Shown here: one piece after another, positions 1 to 6,325 of the stretch | Position numbering within the stretch: position 1 is the first letter of the stretch | Layout of the letters: each line of letters opens with the position of its first letter | From: Candidatus Cloacimonadota bacterium | Lineage (GTDB): Bacteria; Cloacimonadota; Cloacimonadia; Cloacimonadales; Cloacimonadaceae | NCBI GenBank assembly: GCA_017995495.1 | Contig: JAGOIS010000086.1 | Location: 1-6,393 of the forward strand | DNA: 6,393 nt | Direction: 5' to 3' | Translations under genes and position numbers: made by a program | The notes under the pieces: model-generated | The model's database searches: none | Told to the model about the DNA's origin: nothing | Seen by the model: the letters and a program-made list of their open reading frames with translations, nothing else

Positions 1-334
1 CCGGGGCGGTCTCAAACTCGATGAGGGGATTGAAGCTTTTGTCTTCAAAATTCAGCCAGGTGCCGGCCACGCCTGCCTTGGGGTCAACTTCCTGCTTGGA
101 AAGGAAGAACAGGCTGTCCGGGCTGGCACCGCGGTAGATATTGTATTGGATGATCCTGTATTCGCTGCCCAGCGGTTTCCACTTGAGCAATACGCCAGAG
201 CCGTTGTCGTGAGGCATGTCGATGGCGGTGAAATCTTCTATCCGAGCCTGTTTAACGTTTCCACGGGAACAAGCGGTGAGCAGCAGCGCGGCGGCGATCA
301 GCATCAGGGCCGCAAGTTTGATCTTTCTATTCAT
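1..334 (-). CDS. Fn3-like lipoprotein, N-terminal part (truncated by window edge)
   Basis: The ATG lies at 334-332 and 111 codons are open to the window edge, so the C-terminus is missing. Residues 1-22 form a lipoprotein signal peptide: positive N-terminus (NRKIK), hydrophobic core and a canonical LTAC lipobox with Cys22 followed by Ser. The mature protein should be lipid-anchored in the envelope. Residues about 27-80 look like a fibronectin-III-like module, with the motifs LLKWKPL and QYNIYRG. The same segment aligns without gaps to residues about 36-114 of the 1013-residue protein at 5937-2896. By eye about 30 of 79 positions are identical, including shared IPHD/MPHD, WKPL, YRG and LFFL patches, so the two are paralogs. 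A moderate Shine-Dalgarno (GGGGA, 7 bases away) precedes the ATG. It lies 97 bases after the 205-residue gene, with a hairpin between. Whether it also has the C-terminal domain of its paralog cannot be seen. Function unknown. Confidence 0.88.
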   Translation of the reverse strand, partial: MNRKIKLAALMLIAAALLLTACSRGNVKQARIEDFTAIDMPHDNGSGVLLKWKPLGSEYRIIQYNIYRGASPDSLFFLSKQEVDPKAGVAGTWLNFEDKSFNPLIEFETAP

Positions 335-431: not shown

Positions 432-1049
432 TCAGCCAGCGATGGCCTGTTTGATGGCCAGGAAGACGTCATTGACCAGAAACTGGATGCGTCCGATCAG
501 AAGCGAGATACGGGCCATAACCGTGAGTCCGAACGAGGCTCCGAATCCAACCATCATGAACCATTTGCCGATGTTCACGAACTTGCCGTAAACGCCGGTG
601 TGGGCCTTGGAGAAGAAGAAATACAGGAGCACGGTGATGGTGCCGATGAAAATGAGCGCCAGGTTGGCGTTTTCGATGGGCACCATGGCCTGGCGCATCT
701 GCACCAGGATGCTGTTGTGCATGGCCAGCGCGACCGAGGCGCCCACTCCCATCATCGAAAAGGCGATGGGATAGCGCGACAGCCAGCTCAGCTTGCGGGA
801 AAAGCGCAGCAGGTAGAACATACCGATGATGCTGGGGATGATCAGGATCCACTCGTGTTTAAGGAAGATCGGCTGGTAGAAATAGGGGATGAACACCCTT
901 TCGTAGGTGAGCACCAGCGAATAGCCAAGCGAGATCCCCACCAGCAGTTGTTCGGACATCTGGTAGAAGGGATTGTCCTTGTAGAGGAAGGAGAAGATGC
1001 AGAGGGTGAAAAAGGCACCCACGAGATTGCTGAATAATTCGAATGACAT
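432..1049 (-). CDS. Polytopic membrane protein, 205 aa, unknown function
   Basis: This is an uncharacterised integral membrane protein that I do not recognise. Hydrophobic segments fall near residues 8-23, 36-52, 66-81, 94-114, 126-146 and 158-195. The last stretch could be one or two helices, giving six or seven crossings. Short basic loops (residues 82-92 and 148-162) separate them. There is no cleavable signal peptide and no obvious catalytic motif. The start is set by GGAGG five bases before the ATG at 1049-1047. The preceding gene ends at 1061, leaving an 11-base gap, so the two are cotranscribed. Its C-terminal part, with a VGFGAS segment followed by LLIGR, resembles the C-terminus of the 208-residue membrane protein two genes upstream (GVGLGS then LLGIER), so they may be distant relatives. 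It is probably a membrane subunit of the complex encoded by the operon. Coding is certain, function is not. Confidence 0.9.
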   Translation of the reverse strand: MSFELFSNLVGAFFTLCIFSFLYKDNPFYQMSEQLLVGISLGYSLVLTYERVFIPYFYQPIFLKHEWILIIPSIIGMFYLLRFSRKLSWLSRYPIAFSMMGVGASVALAMHNSILVQMRQAMVPIENANLALIFIGTITVLLYFFFSKAHTGVYGKFVNIGKWFMMVGFGASFGLTVMARISLLIGRIQFLVNDVFLAIKQAIAG

Positions 1050-1060
1050 GCTTTCCTCCC

Positions 1061-2254
1061 TTATTGTTTGCCGGCACGGGCTTTCTGGATGAAGTAGCCG
1101 ATGTTTCCGATCAGGATAAACACGATGATCATGATGTGGGCCACGGATTGTGCGTTCATGCCGATGCGGGCCACCTTGAACTTGTAGAGCGTGTTTCGGG
1201 TCAGGCGGTTCAAAGCGCCCCAGGTGTTGGCGGCAAAATCATCAGCCTTGAGTTTGCTCACATCGACCACGATCTTGCCATTGTCTTCTGTTTTAACCTG
1301 GTTCAGCCTGGCCTGGTCCTCCACGGACTGGCCTTTGAGGAAGGTCTGGAATTCCTCGGGAGTGAATTTGGCCTGGGTCTGGGTGGTTATCTTGATCAGG
1401 TCCTGGACCTCAGGTTTCTCCAGCACGTCGTCGCTGAAGGAACGGCCTGGGATCACCTTGTTGCCTTCCGCGTCGGTGGAGGTGGTCAGGGGATCCCCGG
1501 GAGCACGGTAGGCGGCGAAAACATCCACCAGCTTCTCATATTCCGCGGCCCCTTTGAGGCCTGCCAGCATGCCGATGAACTGGCCTGTCTGCAGGTAGGG
1601 ATATTCATCGGCGGCCATCACGGCGGTGACACCCACGGCTATGTTGGTGCCGAATTTGGGCCGCGCGTAGGTGAGCCAGTAGCCACCGGCAACAGAGCCG
1701 GAAAACTCGATCACCAGGTTCATCTCGGTATAGTTGTTGATGCCTTTCATGATCGGCAGGTTCTCCACCTTGCGGCCTTCCGCGTCGGTGGGAACGGCGG
1801 TGGCGATGTTGTCGCCCATGCCGATGATGGTTTGCATGATCAGCGCGCCGGGGATGTAGCCGAAGTTGCAGTAGTCAGTTCCGGACTTGATGTTGGGATA
1901 CTCCTCCTTCACCGAGTTGATGGCCATGTCGATGATGGGGGCGCCGGTGGGCAGGAAGGAGAGGAAAAACACCTTCACGTTGCGCTCGAAGCAGTGGCGC
2001 AGGATCGCTATCTGCATGGGATAGAGCTCCGGCATGGTGGAGGCGTCGTGATAGAAGCTCATCAGGATGGCCCGGTCTTCACGTCCGGCGAAGGAGTCCA
2101 CCATCTGGTAAACGTTTTCGGTGGGGGGGGATGTCACGTTGTCCGAATTGTAGGGGATCATCAGGGGAATGATGATGGCCAGGGCGACAACGATGTAGAT
2201 CCAGCGCCGGTCAAGGGCTTGGAGGCGTTCAAAGAGGGTGAGTTTATCTGCCAT
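1061..2254 (-). CDS. Membrane-anchored alpha/beta domain protein, 397 aa, unknown function
   Basis: The protein starts MADKLTLF. It has one hydrophobic helix at residues 18-34 after a basic stretch (DRRW) and another at 371-389 followed by KARAGK, so both ends should face the cytoplasm. Residues about 38-365 would then lie outside the membrane. Residues 60-120 alternate predicted strand and helix in a Rossmann-like way (RAILMSFYHD, then VKVFFLSFLPTG). A Gly- and Ala-rich stretch follows at 180-240, and an acidic, Gln- and Thr-rich segment at 255-340. A short motif, TDAEGRK or TDAEGNK, occurs twice (157-163 and 260-266) within a 17-base DNA repeat. A run of eight C encodes part of residues 42-44. 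A TTG three codons upstream is possible, but GGAGGTGA is correctly spaced only for the ATG at 2254. The gene begins two bases after the upstream stop, implying translational coupling. No enzyme motif is recognised; it is probably a partner of the 1013-residue protein. Confidence 0.9.
   Translation of the reverse strand: MADKLTLFERLQALDRRWIYIVVALAIIIPLMIPYNSDNVTSPPTENVYQMVDSFAGREDRAILMSFYHDASTMPELYPMQIAILRHCFERNVKVFFLSFLPTGAPIIDMAINSVKEEYPNIKSGTDYCNFGYIPGALIMQTIIGMGDNIATAVPTDAEGRKVENLPIMKGINNYTEMNLVIEFSGSVAGGYWLTYARPKFGTNIAVGVTAVMAADEYPYLQTGQFIGMLAGLKGAAEYEKLVDVFAAYRAPGDPLTTSTDAEGNKVIPGRSFSDDVLEKPEVQDLIKITTQTQAKFTPEEFQTFLKGQSVEDQARLNQVKTEDNGKIVVDVSKLKADDFAANTWGALNRLTRNTLYKFKVARIGMNAQSVAHIMIIVFILIGNIGYFIQKARAGKQ
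1463..1479. repeat. 17-base direct repeat within the 397-aa gene, copy 1
   Basis: The sequence GCCTTCCGCGTCGGTGG on the plus strand is identical to that at 1775-1791, 312 bases apart centre to centre. In the gene it encodes the repeated peptide TDAEG followed by N and K. The spacing is a multiple of three, so both copies are read in the same frame. The match is exact at DNA level, including synonymous positions. Confidence 0.8.
1775..1791. repeat. 17-base direct repeat within the 397-aa gene, copy 2
   Basis: This is the second exact copy of the 17-mer at 1463-1479, encoding TDAEG followed by R and K at residues 157-163. Sequence identity ends immediately on both sides. The two copies look like hydrophilic loop inserts rather than a repeated domain. 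Confidence 0.8.
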
Positions 2255-2256
2255 GA

Positions 2257-2883
2257 TCAATCACCTCCCAGGTAGGAGCGTTCTATTCCCAGCAGGATCT
2301 TCAGGGTGGTGGCCACGCTGCCGAGGCCCACCCCCAACATGATCCCGCGCTTGGAAGCCAGGTTCGGCACGTCCAGGATCCATTGTGAAATATTCGGCAG
2401 ATGCTTGCTGATCTTCACTCCCAGCGGCACCTGGGCCAGCATCACCACAATGGCCGCGACCAGCAGCACCGTGGCCTCGGGAGACCTGGCGCGGAAGGCC
2501 TTGTAGGCGGCGGAGGCCATGTAAAACGCCAGCAGCGAGAACATGGTGGCGCTCATCGGCATCTGCATGTTTTCAAACAGCCACATATAGAGCCCGCCTT
2601 TCTGGGTTCCGCCGATGAAGCCAGCCAGCGATGTGATGATAAAGCCTGCAAAGAAAAAGAAGCTGTATTGCCATTTGGGGGCTTTGCGCCTGATCTTGCC
2701 ATAGTGCATCATGGTGAGGCTCATCACGCCAAGCAGCATTCCAAAGGGAGACATGGCCCGTACCCAGGGCACGTAAAACTCGTAGTAAAATACATCTTGG
2801 AGCAGCCTGTGGGGCACAAAAACCCAGGCCAGCCAGATGAGTCCTCCGATTATCACTATCAACAGGGGGATTGTCTTCTTCAT
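2257..2883 (-). CDS. Polytopic membrane protein, 208 aa, unknown function
   Basis: An integral membrane protein I do not recognise. Hydrophobic segments lie near residues 4-24, 43-60, 72-92, 109-128, 137-155 and 178-198, suggesting six helices. The basic loop KIRRKAPK (63-70) and the basic patch KAFRAR (128-133) mark likely cytoplasmic sides. The first helix could pass for a signal peptide but has no clear cleavage site, and the rest is polytopic. The ATG at 2883-2881 is preceded by GAGG six bases away, and the upstream gene ends 12 bases before it. The last three codons and stop (GGA GGT GAT TGA) also form the ribosome binding site of the next gene, so translation of the two is probably coupled. 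The C-terminal helix region resembles that of the 205-residue protein in the same operon. Coding is well supported; a role as a membrane subunit of the operon's complex is inferred from context only. Confidence 0.9.
   Translation of the reverse strand: MKKTIPLLIVIIGGLIWLAWVFVPHRLLQDVFYYEFYVPWVRAMSPFGMLLGVMSLTMMHYGKIRRKAPKWQYSFFFFAGFIITSLAGFIGGTQKGGLYMWLFENMQMPMSATMFSLLAFYMASAAYKAFRARSPEATVLLVAAIVVMLAQVPLGVKISKHLPNISQWILDVPNLASKRGIMLGVGLGSVATTLKILLGIERSYLGGD
2261..2268 (-). promoter_or_regulatory. Ribosome binding site deciding the start of the 397-aa gene
   Basis: On the minus strand this reads GGAGGTGA, a near-perfect Shine-Dalgarno six bases before the ATG at 2254-2252. The alternative TTG at 2260-2258 would abut it directly, too close for normal initiation. 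The site is embedded in the last codons of the upstream gene, which suits coupled translation. Confidence 0.8.
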
Positions 2884-2895
2884 CTAAGACCTCTT

Positions 2896-5800
2896 TTATT
2901 TTACGGGGAAAATTTGCATTAAGCCGGTCATCTGGAAGGTGGCCAGCAGGGCACCGGCGATCACCAGGACCAGGATCAGGAACTTAAAATAATCCTGGGC
3001 TTTCAGGGTTCCCAGCAGCATCGGTTCGCGGTTCAGGTAGGCGGAGGCGGCGTAGAGCTCCTCGCCAATGAGGGTGTAGTCGCAGGTGGTGATAAAGAAC
3101 GGGATCTGGGTGATGGCGTCCGAGCCGGCGATCTGCACCGCTCCCACCGCGTTTCCTGTCTCCGTCATGAGCAAAGCCTCAGCGGCGAAATAGCCCATGA
3201 AGAAGTTGGTGGCCATCTTTTCACGGATCATGATCCCGTTCACGCCGGCCACATAGGCAAACTGCACCGAGGTGAGGTAGAACACGTTGTTTTTGTCAAA
3301 GCTGTCCGGGCGTCCCACCGCGTAGTGAGCTTCGCGGACGATCTCCTGGGCGATGGGCATCACAATGTAGTCGTAGCAGGGAACAATCAGCTTGGTGTCA
3401 TATTCAGCGGCTTTTTTGGCCACCAGGCTCAGGATTCCCATGGAAGCGAGGGTGGCCACGTCGGAGAGGCCGCCGTTGCCCATGCAGTAAAGCATCGGGC
3501 GCCCCATCTCGGTGGCGCGGCCGATCGCGTTGTCGATCTCCTCCAATCCCGCGATGGGTCGCATATACAGGTCCTTGCCCTTTTTGGCCAGGTTCACGAA
3601 CACCACCACCATGATCCCGAAGATGATCACCGCGATCAGGGTGATCAGCTTGTTCCAGTCGAACCAGTTGGATATGGGGGCGTGGTATCTGGGGTCGCCA
3701 TCCTTGGTGGTGGAGGGCTCGGTTTCCGAAAAGAGGGCTTCTCCGTTCGTCCTGACGATGGCATAGCTGTGTTTGCGTGATTCAGCTTCCCGGATGGAGG
3801 AAACCAGCTTCATCAGGCCTCTGCTGCTGGTCTGTTTCAGGGCTTGCAGGAAGGTCTTGTTACCCTTGTAGGCCGGGATTTTCGTTTCCAGGCCCTGGGC
3901 CTTTTGGGTGAGGCCGGCGATTGCCGCGGTGAAGGCCTCCGCCTGCTGCGGGGAAGCCGCCCGGGCCAGAGAATCCTGATACGCGGCTATTTCCTGCTTG
4001 GCGTCCTTCAGTTCGGTTTCAAAATTGGTAATGGTCTTTTTCGCCTCATCCAGGTAGATGCTGGTGTTGAGCACCGTGTCGTTGTCCTTGTCGTAGGTGA
4101 AATCGATCTCCGAGGAAACGAGGGTGAGGTTGCCGGCCTTTTCGCCCGGCTCAAGTTTGCGGGCGAACCTTTTGCCGCCCATATAGGTGTAAAGCGAATC
4201 TCCCTTCACAAAGTTGAAGCCGGACACTGGCTTGACCACCGTGGACATGTATCCCACGGTGACGTCGAGGTTGTTCTCATACGAAGTGCTGCTCTTCACC
4301 TGGCTGTAGGATTTGCCCCTGTAGCTCTTGCGGTAGACCACATTTTGCACCTGGGAGACGTCCACTCCGTTCAGAAAGAGCCCCCGGGTGGGCATGTAGG
4401 CCATCATGGCGGGGTCCGGTTTGAGATACTGGACCATCTCGTAATCTTTGATCTGCGCCTTTTTCCCGTAGGTGATGCGGCCGTTGCGGGGATTGTTGGT
4501 ATAGGGTTTGGCGGCTATGGTGATCTTCACTTTCAGGCTGTCATCCGGGAGCTTGTCAACGTTCTTGAGTGAATACCGGGGGGAAATGTCCACGTGGATG
4601 ATGTTGTCCAGATAAAACTCGTTGACCTTGGCAAAGGAGACAGTCTTGCCCGGTTCAAAAAACTCGAAGTAGATGTTCTCTATGTTCTGGTGGTCGGTTT
4701 TGTTCACCTGGTAGTTCACCTTGAGCCTGGTCCCGTCTTTTTTGAGGGATGAGGTTTTGGTCACCGAGACCACCGGGTCCTGCCAGGTTACGGTGATGCG
4801 GTCGCCCTTGTCCATGGGTTTGTCATCCACCCGGAATCTGGCGATCTGGGGCAGGGCTTGGCTGGTTACCAGGCGTGGCGTGGAAAGCGGGCTCAGGGGC
4901 GAGGGGTTCATGCTGCCATCCATGAAACGGATGGCATAGCGGCCCTGGCTGGCGACATCCCAGGTGAGTGCCGGCGAAGCCTGAAGCAGCTCTGTTTCCT
5001 TGAGGACGCAGTTGTTTTTCAGCGTTCCTCCCCCCACCATGTCCTGGGAGATCAAGATCCCACTCTGGGCTGCCAGAGCATCCTTTTGCGGGGCCTCCAT
5101 CCTTTTCCAAATGGAATCTTGCATCGCAGGCACAAGATAGATCGCGTACATGGTCAGATCATCGTGATTGAGGGGATACTGCCACTCAAACTGCAGGGTC
5201 CTGCTGTCGCCGATGGCGGCGGAAAACAGTCCGGGAGAAGCTTCGGGGGCGTCGTCAACCGGTGTGCCGAACACCGGTTTGGCAATACCCAGATACTGGC
5301 TGCGCTCGTTGACGGGCACCACCGTGTAGTAGTATTTAACCGGTTCCTGCCCGGGCTGAGGGCTCATCAGCGAAGCCAGGATCGTCTGCTGGTTGAACCT
5401 CAGGCCGGCATAAATGTTTTTGTCTTCTTTGTCGGCGCTTCTGGCCTTGCTGGTCCGGTAATAATAATCTCCGTCTTCGATCTGGGAGATCAGGCCAAAA
5501 CTTTCGCTCAACCTGGCCGCCAGCTCTGTATCGCGAGGCACGCCGCGGTAAAGGTTGCTGCCGGGGGCCCCCTTTTCGTTTTTGAGTTTCCCCGGGGAAT
5601 CCAGGCTGATGAACGTGCTGTACCCGCTGTCATAATAGTACATTTGATCTGAAGCCACGCCTGTTTTCACGTTCACCTGCACCGAGGCCAGGAAAAACAG
5701 GGTGTCCGGATGCACGCCGCGATAAACCCGGTACTCCTGCACCCGTTTGTCTTTGGACAGGGGTTTCCAACTGAGCATCAGGCCATCCCCGCCATCATGG

Positions 5801-5937
5801 GGGATGTCTTCTACCCGGAGGTTTTCCACCACCAGTTTCTTGAGTCCTTCCTGATCCTGCGCGTTTGGCCCGCTACAGCCGTAGGCAAGCAAACCCAGCA
5901 GCATCACCAGGATTACAAGCCGTATGTACAGCTTCAT
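2896..5937 (-). CDS. Large envelope protein, 1013 aa: putative lipoprotein with Fn3-like modules, coiled coil, membrane helix and DUF6754-like C-terminal domain
   Basis: This is the first and largest gene of the operon. AGGAG lies seven bases before the ATG. Residues 1-21 form a signal peptide ending AYGC; Cys21 could be lipidated, though Tyr before Gly is unusual in a lipobox. Fn3-like modules are suggested near residues 35-115, 228-360 and 362-480 (motifs LSWKPL with EYRVYRG, FEWQYPL, VTWQDP). A beta-rich region follows to about 625 and a coiled-coil-like stretch covers 628-690. A membrane helix at 763-783 is followed by basic AKKGK, so residues 787-980 should be cytoplasmic, with a final helix at 984-1001. 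The 787-980 domain has alternating strands and helices, a GNGG motif (820-823) and Cys at 818, 854 and 952. From memory it resembles the uncharacterised family DUF6754; I could not check. It probably scaffolds a complex with the next three membrane proteins and links outside to inside. Function unknown. Confidence 0.92.
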   Translation of the reverse strand: MKLYIRLVILVMLLGLLAYGCSGPNAQDQEGLKKLVVENLRVEDIPHDGGDGLMLSWKPLSKDKRVQEYRVYRGVHPDTLFFLASVQVNVKTGVASDQMYYYDSGYSTFISLDSPGKLKNEKGAPGSNLYRGVPRDTELAARLSESFGLISQIEDGDYYYRTSKARSADKEDKNIYAGLRFNQQTILASLMSPQPGQEPVKYYYTVVPVNERSQYLGIAKPVFGTPVDDAPEASPGLFSAAIGDSRTLQFEWQYPLNHDDLTMYAIYLVPAMQDSIWKRMEAPQKDALAAQSGILISQDMVGGGTLKNNCVLKETELLQASPALTWDVASQGRYAIRFMDGSMNPSPLSPLSTPRLVTSQALPQIARFRVDDKPMDKGDRITVTWQDPVVSVTKTSSLKKDGTRLKVNYQVNKTDHQNIENIYFEFFEPGKTVSFAKVNEFYLDNIIHVDISPRYSLKNVDKLPDDSLKVKITIAAKPYTNNPRNGRITYGKKAQIKDYEMVQYLKPDPAMMAYMPTRGLFLNGVDVSQVQNVVYRKSYRGKSYSQVKSSTSYENNLDVTVGYMSTVVKPVSGFNFVKGDSLYTYMGGKRFARKLEPGEKAGNLTLVSSEIDFTYDKDNDTVLNTSIYLDEAKKTITNFETELKDAKQEIAAYQDSLARAASPQQAEAFTAAIAGLTQKAQGLETKIPAYKGNKTFLQALKQTSSRGLMKLVSSIREAESRKHSYAIVRTNGEALFSETEPSTTKDGDPRYHAPISNWFDWNKLITLIAVIIFGIMVVVFVNLAKKGKDLYMRPIAGLEEIDNAIGRATEMGRPMLYCMGNGGLSDVATLASMGILSLVAKKAAEYDTKLIVPCYDYIVMPIAQEIVREAHYAVGRPDSFDKNNVFYLTSVQFAYVAGVNGIMIREKMATNFFMGYFAAEALLMTETGNAVGAVQIAGSDAITQIPFFITTCDYTLIGEELYAASAYLNREPMLLGTLKAQDYFKFLILVLVIAGALLATFQMTGLMQIFPVK

Positions 5938-6159: not shown

Positions 6160-6236
6160 TGGTGGGTGATACTGGATTCGAACCAGTGACCTCTACGATG
6201 TGAACGTAGCGCTCTAACCAGCTGAGCTAATCACCC
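6160..6236 (-). tRNA. tRNA-Val (anticodon CAC)
   Basis: On the minus strand a complete cloverleaf folds. The seven-pair acceptor stem is GGGTGAT with ATCACCC, the D arm has GCTC with GAGC, and the anticodon stem is CTACG with CGTAG. The T arm is ACTGG with CCAGT around TTCGAAT. The anticodon loop TTCACAT places CAC at 6202-6200, reading the valine codon GUG. The discriminator A and an encoded CCA end the gene, for 77 bases. It lies 11 bases after the tRNA-Val(GAC) gene and is surely cotranscribed with it. No clear intrinsic terminator follows: the 147 bases to the next promoter-like element hold only short weak palindromes. Confidence 0.96.
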
Positions 6237-6247
6237 CGTTCAAGAGG

Positions 6248-6325
<78 letters not shown>

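What the first reader, a model, noticed from the sequence alone, without database searches (positions are those of the whole stretch)
432..5937. Four-gene, all-membrane operon with no recognised function: candidate undescribed envelope complex
All four products carry membrane segments and are encoded with 2-12 base spacers and strong ribosome binding sites. No product has a recognisable enzyme or transporter motif. The mix of a large Fn3-like putative lipoprotein with a cytoplasmic domain, a two-ended membrane-anchored alpha/beta protein, and two small polytopic proteins suggests a fixed-stoichiometry complex spanning the cytoplasmic membrane. Coupling and topology are read from sequence; the complex is inferred.
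Basis: partly seen in the sequence, partly recalled or inferred. Interest (0 to 1): 0.75.

Follow-up and report, generated by a model that had tools for sequence, protein, structure and literature searches.

The report
Unknown six-part membrane ATPase machine
Four neighbouring genes, kept in the same order in little-known bacteria well beyond their own phylum and almost only in genomes that also carry genes for a MutL-like ATPase and a barrel-fold partner protein, likely encode the membrane part of an undescribed machine that is predicted to use ATP to move or assemble something across the inner membrane.

Summary
The window comes from a Candidatus Syntrophosphaera-like Cloacimonadota genome. 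On the minus strand it holds DUF6754 (PF20539), S1, AB and S2, then a fifth gene cut by the contig end: a second large DUF6754-type protein.

The order DUF6754-S1-AB-S2 is kept in 23 of 27 DUF6754 genes in 18 loci (16 genomes) outside the phylum, taken on DUF6754 score alone. DUF6754 occurs in 121 of 124 Cloacimonadota and 43 of 165 other genomes. Two soluble partners go with it: a long MutL-family ATPase and a ~375-aa barrel-sandwich protein (BSH). Of the 43, 40 have BSH and 40 have MutL; BSH is in 0 of the 122 without DUF6754. All six genes form one cluster in 15 of 38 genomes inspected. A MutL-BSH fusion gene was found in 12 of 15 Cloacimonadota searched.

Best reading: the membrane part of a six-component, ATP-driven trans-envelope complex. 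The gene set is shown; the physical complex, ATP use and cargo are inferred. The openly licensed papers searched held no description.

The parts
2896..5937 (-). Large DUF6754 protein (1013 aa): signal segment, Fn3-like extracytoplasmic part, TM, cytoplasmic Rossmann-like DUF6754 domain, TM
   Evidence: PF20539 E 1.8e-117 at residues 756-1010; AF2 model of the last 279 residues pLDDT 86, pTM 0.76; topology from signal segment and positive-inside rule (inferred)
2908..3672 (-). DUF6754 domain itself
   Evidence: Genome search match G000:C104:2908-3672, E 4.5e-119; median 50% identity to 27 domains from outside the phylum
2257..2883 (-). S1, polytopic membrane protein (208 aa, 6 predicted TM)
   Evidence: ORF; family-averaged hydropathy of 19 members; second gene of the cassette
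1061..2254 (-). AB, alpha/beta protein anchored by a TM at each end (397 aa); predicted extracytoplasmic Rossmann-like domain with a lineage-specific insert (about residues 248-360)
   Evidence: AF2 pLDDT 88.5, pTM 0.85; positive-inside analysis on 15 and 91 sequences
432..1049 (-). S2, polytopic membrane protein (205 aa, 6-7 predicted TM)
   Evidence: ORF; hydropathy of 18 members; last gene of the cassette
2..334 (-). Fifth gene, 5' end only: second DUF6754-type protein (111 aa read before the contig ends)
   Evidence: phmmer to the large protein 66 bits; copies follow S2 in L002, L003, L005-L008, L010-L014 and L057

Best explanation
The window's four genes encode the membrane part of a gene system that likely forms one six-component, ATP-powered complex across the inner membrane, in which a cytoplasmic MutL-like ATPase is predicted to act through a barrel-sandwich protein on the DUF6754 domain. 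Shown: the gene order, the co-occurrence of the genes, the fusion of the two soluble ones in Cloacimonadota, and confident Rossmann-like models for the DUF6754 and AB domains. Inferred: S1 and S2 form the membrane core; DUF6754 presents its Rossmann-like domain to the cytoplasm and its Fn3 arm outside; AB presents a similar domain on the outer face. ATP binding and hydrolysis by MutL would be passed by BSH to DUF6754, and the membrane core would use this to transport, export or assemble a still unknown substrate. The tree suggests two old versions of the cassette: the window holds one, and most MutL- or BSH-linked cassettes fall outside its group. The two versions may form a paired machine.
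For: Order DUF6754-S1-AB-S2 in 23 of 27 DUF6754 genes in 18 loci (16 genomes) outside the phylum, being all such places in the printed list, often with overlaps of 1-4 bases. Co-occurrence in the same 289 genomes: BSH in 40 of 43 non-Cloacimonadota genomes with DUF6754 and in 0 of 122 without; MutL in 40 of 43 against 13 of 122, of which one has the long form. All six genes in one cluster in 15 of 38 BSH-bearing non-Cloacimonadota genomes inspected; BSH linked to DUF6754 in 20 of 38. MutL and BSH in one open frame in 12 of 15 Cloacimonadota searched, including the window's own genome (G000:C53). The own genome also holds a second cassette, cut by the contig end before S2 (L046), and separate MutL and BSH genes (L079). 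Nucleotide-binding motifs invariant or nearly so in 18 MutL-long proteins (assignment of the motifs recalled). BSH matches RnfC_N in 14 and Biotin_lipoyl in 13 of 17 members at E up to 0.1, best E 4.9e-8. AF2 models pLDDT 86 and 88.5. Whole-cassette duplication in a concatenated tree of 48 cassettes.
Confidence: 0.45

Rival explanations
1. A redox-driven ion pump of NQR/RNF style: a barrel-sandwich subunit docks on two small polytopic subunits and soluble Rossmann domains bind a nicotinamide.
For: BSH members match RnfC_N (14 of 17) and NQRA_N (5 of 17) weakly; two small polytopic subunits of about 205 aa recall RnfA/E or NqrD/E in size (recalled); transhydrogenase domain III is among the fold neighbours of DUF6754 and AB; one small gene before a MutL gene (L085) is a 2Fe-2S type protein.
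Against: No Rnf-Nqr, FMN-binding or Fe-S family listed for the window proteins or for members of the S1, S2 and BSH alignments; no invariant cysteine in BSH, AB, S1 or S2, one in DUF6754 and one in MutL-long; an ATPase, not a dehydrogenase, is the constant partner.
Confidence: 0.1
2. A cobalamin-linked system: MutL-long reactivates or loads a B12 enzyme and the membrane cassette handles the cofactor or substrate.
For: MutL-long belongs to PF13941, whose named relatives (GlmL) are accessories of B12 mutases (NCBIfam scores below cut-off); 30 of 43 DUF6754 genomes outside the phylum have a methylmalonyl-CoA-mutase-type protein.
Against: 13 of the 43 genomes have none; the family is common anyway (8 of 14 control genomes); no such mutase was recognised among the flanking proteins that were scanned; the constant neighbours are BSH and the cassette.
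Confidence: 0.1
3. A cell-surface secretion or motility motor that works with the type IX secretion system.
For: SprA_N found in 24 of 43 genomes with DUF6754 against 5 of 37 (of 122) without (Fisher 1.4e-4). The largest group of similar flanking proteins (9 proteins, 8 loci) is made largely of proteins with T9SS-type tails: FlgD_ig or Por_Secre_tail in 5 of 7 scanned by Pfam and in L072 by NCBIfam; a further one in L081. Large Fn3-like arms.
Against: 19 of 43 have no SprA_N match; no T9SS component gene was recognised beside the cassettes; how common sorting-tail proteins are elsewhere in these genomes was not measured; the enrichment may reflect shared ancestry.
Confidence: 0.15
4. Co-transcribed but separate membrane proteins with no common complex.
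For: No interaction data; a lone DUF6754 gene in L064, L068 and L072 and in the fifth position of Cloacimonadota operons.
Against: Fixed order in distant genomes, overlapping reading frames, whole-cassette duplication, BSH found only in genomes with the cassette outside Cloacimonadota.
Confidence: 0.08

Closest known systems
DUF6754 (Pfam PF20539)
   Same: The large protein carries the whole domain at E 1.8e-117
   Different: The Pfam name gives no function and covers one domain; the conserved partners S1, AB, S2, BSH and MutL-long are not covered by it
MutL/GlmL family (PF13941), ASKHA-type ATPases
   Same: The constant cytoplasmic partner matches the whole PF13941 profile (L063: E 1.1e-128)
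   Different: About 590-650 aa with a C-terminal extension, tied to BSH and DUF6754 rather than to a mutase; below the NCBIfam cut-offs for GlmL
ABC-type binding-protein-dependent transporters
   Same: Layout only: cytoplasmic ATPase, two polytopic subunits, a membrane-anchored domain outside (analogy, recalled)
   Different: No ABC ATPase or ABC permease family found; the ATPase is of the MutL type
RNF/NQR complexes (RnfC, NqrA barrel-sandwich subunits)
   Same: BSH has an RnfC_N-like barrel-sandwich region; two small polytopic subunits
   Different: No redox cofactor motifs seen, no Rnf-Nqr family membership
gamma_Glu_sys (TIGR04332), poly-gamma-glutamate system protein
   Same: Protein with a hydrophobic segment at each end (sequences), present in 7 of 7 Cloacimonadota searched
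   Different: No sequence relation to AB or DUF6754 (NCBIfam scan of 15 AB proteins; profile comparison probability under 1%)

Membership tests
DUF6754 (PF20539) | Profile match above the curated cut-off over the whole domain | tested here: met
   391.5 bits against cut-off 27, profile 3-257 of 257
MutL/GlmL B12 reactivases | PF13941 match of the partner ATPase | tested here: met
   430 bits against cut-off 27 for L063
MutL/GlmL B12 reactivases | NCBIfam GlmL/Or-4 equivalog cut-off | tested here: not met
   242.6 of 475 and 208.4 of 600 bits for L063
MutL/GlmL B12 reactivases | A B12-dependent mutase in the same genome | tested here: inconclusive
   13 of 43 genomes lack PF01642; other B12 enzymes were not searched
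ABC transporter | ABC ATPase or ABC permease domain in the system | tested here: not met
   No ABC ATPase or permease family for the window proteins, MutL or BSH; among S1/S2 members only an ABC TMD0 hint, best E 0.011, in 4 of 19 S1 proteins
RNF/NQR ion pump | Barrel-sandwich subunit of RnfC/NqrA type | tested here: inconclusive
   RnfC_N 14 of 17, NQRA_N 5 of 17 at E up to 0.1, best 4.9e-8 and 1.5e-5; barrel-sandwich folds are widespread
RNF/NQR ion pump | Rnf-Nqr polytopic subunits, FMN or Fe-S sites | tested here: not met
   No such family listed; no cysteine cluster among invariant residues
Type IX secretion system | Constant presence with SprA | tested here: not met
   SprA_N in 24 of 43 DUF6754 genomes and 5 of 37 others
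gamma_Glu_sys (TIGR04332) | Profile match of AB | tested here: not met
   Not matched by any of 15 AB proteins at E up to 0.1
Rossmann-like folds (Sir2, CODH epsilon, RCK) | Specific fold relation | tested here: inconclusive

The most novel reading that the evidence does not exclude
A new class of primary active membrane machine, spread over many candidate phyla, in which an actin/Hsp70-like (ASKHA) MutL ATPase replaces the ABC ATPase: it drives, through a barrel-sandwich coupling protein, a two-faced membrane core that carries Rossmann-like domains on both sides of the membrane.
Probability: 0.25. Interest if true: 0.88.

Novelty: categorically new. Interest (0 to 1): 0.7.

Why it matters
A gene set kept in fixed order in Cloacimonadota and in distant candidate lineages, present in 121 of 124 Cloacimonadota genomes searched and without any named function, points to a basic process of these bacteria that is not in the textbooks. 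The link to one ATPase family and one barrel-sandwich family, including a natural fusion, turns an unknown domain into a defined six-part system that can be expressed and tested.

Tried and rejected
AB as a relative of DUF6754: the order of helices and strands in the models is similar, but profile comparison gives 3% probability, so only a shared kind of fold is claimed. Invariant DUF6754 residues as a classical Rossmann active site: 17 of 67 fall in the strand-end zone that makes up 54 of 279 positions, no clear enrichment. Other flanking genes as a clue to function: OPT transporter, penicillin amidase, DUF819, NTP transferase and lipoate ligase at one locus each, TPR proteins at two. BSH as a lipoyl or biotinyl carrier: not supported but not excluded; the alignment has one nearly invariant lysine in the second barrel half (arginine in L088), and the rest of the usual hairpin was not recognised by eye. 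Poly-gamma-glutamate system: no sequence relation. Solved structures: no sequence relative of AB, S2 or MutL-long, nothing credible for BSH (best E 0.015) and S1 (best 0.48), and only Fn3 domains for DUF6754. A distance comparison of the four families was spoilt by fragments and was replaced by the tree; there 48 cassettes were kept after four were dropped for short pieces (L002, L054, L062_8327, L063), and further ones were left out by name (L051 a repeat of L006, L078, L072_1916, L004, L008). Paper searches for DUF6754, PF20539 and related terms found no description; only openly licensed papers are held, so this is weak. Absence from the VIA rows is not taken as exclusion of any fold.
Full report
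What is in the window. The four ORFs lie on the minus strand as stated: the large protein 2896-5937, S1 2257-2883, AB 1061-2254 and S2 432-1049, with spacers of 12, 2 and 11 bases and good ribosome binding sites. Upstream stand two tRNA-Val genes. Downstream the contig ends inside a fifth gene (2-334) that resembles the start of the large protein. The closest named relatives of AB are from Candidatus Syntrophosphaera. Of the 14 related loci from named genomes, 13 are labelled Cloacimonadota or Cloacimonetes and one Candidatus Syntrophosphaera thermopropionivorans.

What the proteins are. Only the large protein has a Pfam match above cut-off, PF20539/DUF6754 at residues 756-1010. In most loci outside the phylum the same domain sits in a shorter protein of about 370-490 aa (L063 has a 943-aa one); a profile of 16 short forms shows an Fn3 domain. 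The domain is well kept: median 50% identity between the window and 27 domains from outside the phylum. AB, S1 and S2 of the window match no family, and alignments of their relatives give only scattered weak hits. AlphaFold2 gives confident models of the last 279 residues of the large protein (pLDDT 86, pTM 0.76) and of AB (pLDDT 88.5, pTM 0.85). Both are Rossmann-like domains held between two membrane helices. Fold searches give no specific relative. By the positive-inside rule the DUF6754 domain would face the cytoplasm and the AB domain the outside, S1 would have both ends inside, and S2 its N-terminus outside (inference).

The cassette. In these loci 23 of 27 DUF6754 genes are followed by S1, AB and S2 in this order on the same strand. 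The other four are lone genes in L064 and L068 and two in L072; one of the latter is misread because of an over-long AB start. Tandem cassettes are common, for example three in L061. In the Cloacimonadota loci the order is the same, and in many of them a second large DUF6754 gene follows S2. DUF6754 occurs in 121 of 124 Cloacimonadota genomes, in 43 of 165 genomes outside the phylum, and in none of 14 control genomes.

Two soluble partners. Comparing neighbours showed two more recurring proteins near the cassette. One matches PF13941, MutL. The other, of about 375 aa, has a barrel-sandwich hybrid region by weak RnfC_N, Biotin_lipoyl and NQRA_N matches and is called BSH here. The same 289 genomes were searched for DUF6754, MutL and BSH. 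Among the 165 genomes outside the phylum, BSH is in 40 of 43 with DUF6754 and in 0 of 122 without; MutL is in 40 of 43 and in 13 of 122. Of the 13, seven are weak (E 1e-6 or worse), five have frames of 455-503 aa, the length of classic GlmL, and one, G210, is of the long form. The long form was seen in the loci and in the matches that were listed, not checked for each of the 40. Exceptions: G181 and G200 lack both partners, G153 lacks BSH and its MutL match is weak, G130 lacks MutL; three Cloacimonadota without a DUF6754 match (G049, G060, G095) have both partners. In the controls MutL rings in 2 of 14, both below the cut-off. Fisher values (3e-35 for BSH) ignore shared ancestry.

Linkage. I inspected 38 of the 40 genomes outside the phylum with BSH (not G183 and G225). 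All six genes lie in one cluster in 15 (L062, L063, L074, L076, L077, L083, L084, L087, L088, L093, L107, L110, L115, L116, L124). BSH is linked to DUF6754 in 20, one of these at 2.6 kb, and MutL is within 1 kb of BSH in 23. In Cloacimonadota the MutL-BSH pair sits apart from the cassette in the four loci inspected: own genome L079, and L080, L090 and L091. In addition, one open frame that joins a MutL part and a BSH part was found in 12 of 15 Cloacimonadota searched, including the own genome (G000:C53); G001, G016 and G103 have the two as neighbouring separate genes only (the copy of G120 is cut). In L055 the fusion gene stands about 300 bases upstream of a full cassette. Fusion of two genes that are neighbours elsewhere is a classical sign of working together.

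Two cassette types. The own genome has a second cassette (L046: lipoprotein, short DUF6754 protein, S1, AB, then the contig end). A concatenated, unrooted tree of 48 cassettes has a 27-member group (support 0.935) with the window's Cloacimonadota type, the last cassettes of the tandem arrays L061, L062, L069 and L071, both cassettes of L067, the first of L072, and L065 and L066. The other Cloacimonadota type (L047, L048, L050, L052, L056) lies outside it. Of the MutL- or BSH-linked cassettes in the tree, only L055 is inside this group; L061_8978, L074, L076, L077, L083, L084, L087, L088 and L093_11155 are outside, L074 and L093 being next to it (31-member split, support 1.0). Single-gene trees agree broadly, not in every branch. 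This points to an old duplication of the whole cassette and, as inference, to a paired machine.

Mechanism. The MutL partner keeps its nucleotide-binding motifs (motif assignment recalled). With ATPase and coupling protein in the cytoplasm, two polytopic proteins in the membrane and Rossmann-like domains predicted on both faces, the best reading is an ATP-driven trans-envelope complex. Its substrate is unknown. Redox-pump, B12 and poly-gamma-glutamate readings are less likely. A link to type IX secretion stays open: SprA_N is in 24 of 43 genomes with DUF6754 and 5 of 37 without, and flanking proteins with T9SS-type tails are frequent in Cloacimonadota loci, but 19 of 43 genomes have no SprA_N match and the background frequency of such proteins was not measured.

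Literature. Searches for DUF6754, Cloacimonadota with fibronectin, MutL/GlmL/ASKHA, PF20539 or Syntrophosphaera, membrane complexes in these phyla and the poly-gamma-glutamate system protein showed no description in the listings. Of PMC13082233 I saw the abstract, the section list and one passage; of the six terms searched in it, MutL and fibronectin among them, only 'pgs' occurred, in a passage on poly-gamma-glutamate genes. Other papers were seen as search listings only.

Verdict. Score 0.7.

Noticed in passing
window 6160-6325: Two tRNA-Val genes (anticodons CAC and GAC) in tandem upstream of the operon, very alike, of 77 and 78 bases.
   Followed up: no
L055:3706-6879 (+), own genome G000:C53 (L134:723-3629): A natural MutL-BSH fusion gene, in 12 of 15 Cloacimonadota searched, besides the separate MutL and BSH genes.
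   Followed up: yes
L078:2763-7737: Four AB copies in one cluster, three of them beyond S2.
   Followed up: no
L046:422-1213: A putative lipoprotein precedes the second cassette in L046, L047 and L050; no Pfam match for the L046 one.
   Followed up: partly
window 1061-2254, AB residues about 248-360: An extra insert of roughly 85-120 aa in the AB protein of Cloacimonadaceae, absent in the shorter AB of other Cloacimonadota and of other phyla.
   Followed up: no
L081, L085, L086, L087 and L093, just upstream of MutL-long: A small protein of about 95-135 aa often stands directly before the MutL-long gene; it is not one family: four of five scanned have no Pfam match, the one in L085 is a 2Fe-2S (Fer2) protein.
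   Followed up: partly
L003:2130-4838, L010:1821-4589, L011:194-3019, L047:16144-16977, L007:10839-11222, L072:12328-13797: Large or cut proteins with FlgD_ig or Por_Secre_tail (T9SS-type) ends lie within about 9 kb of the cassettes.
   Followed up: partly
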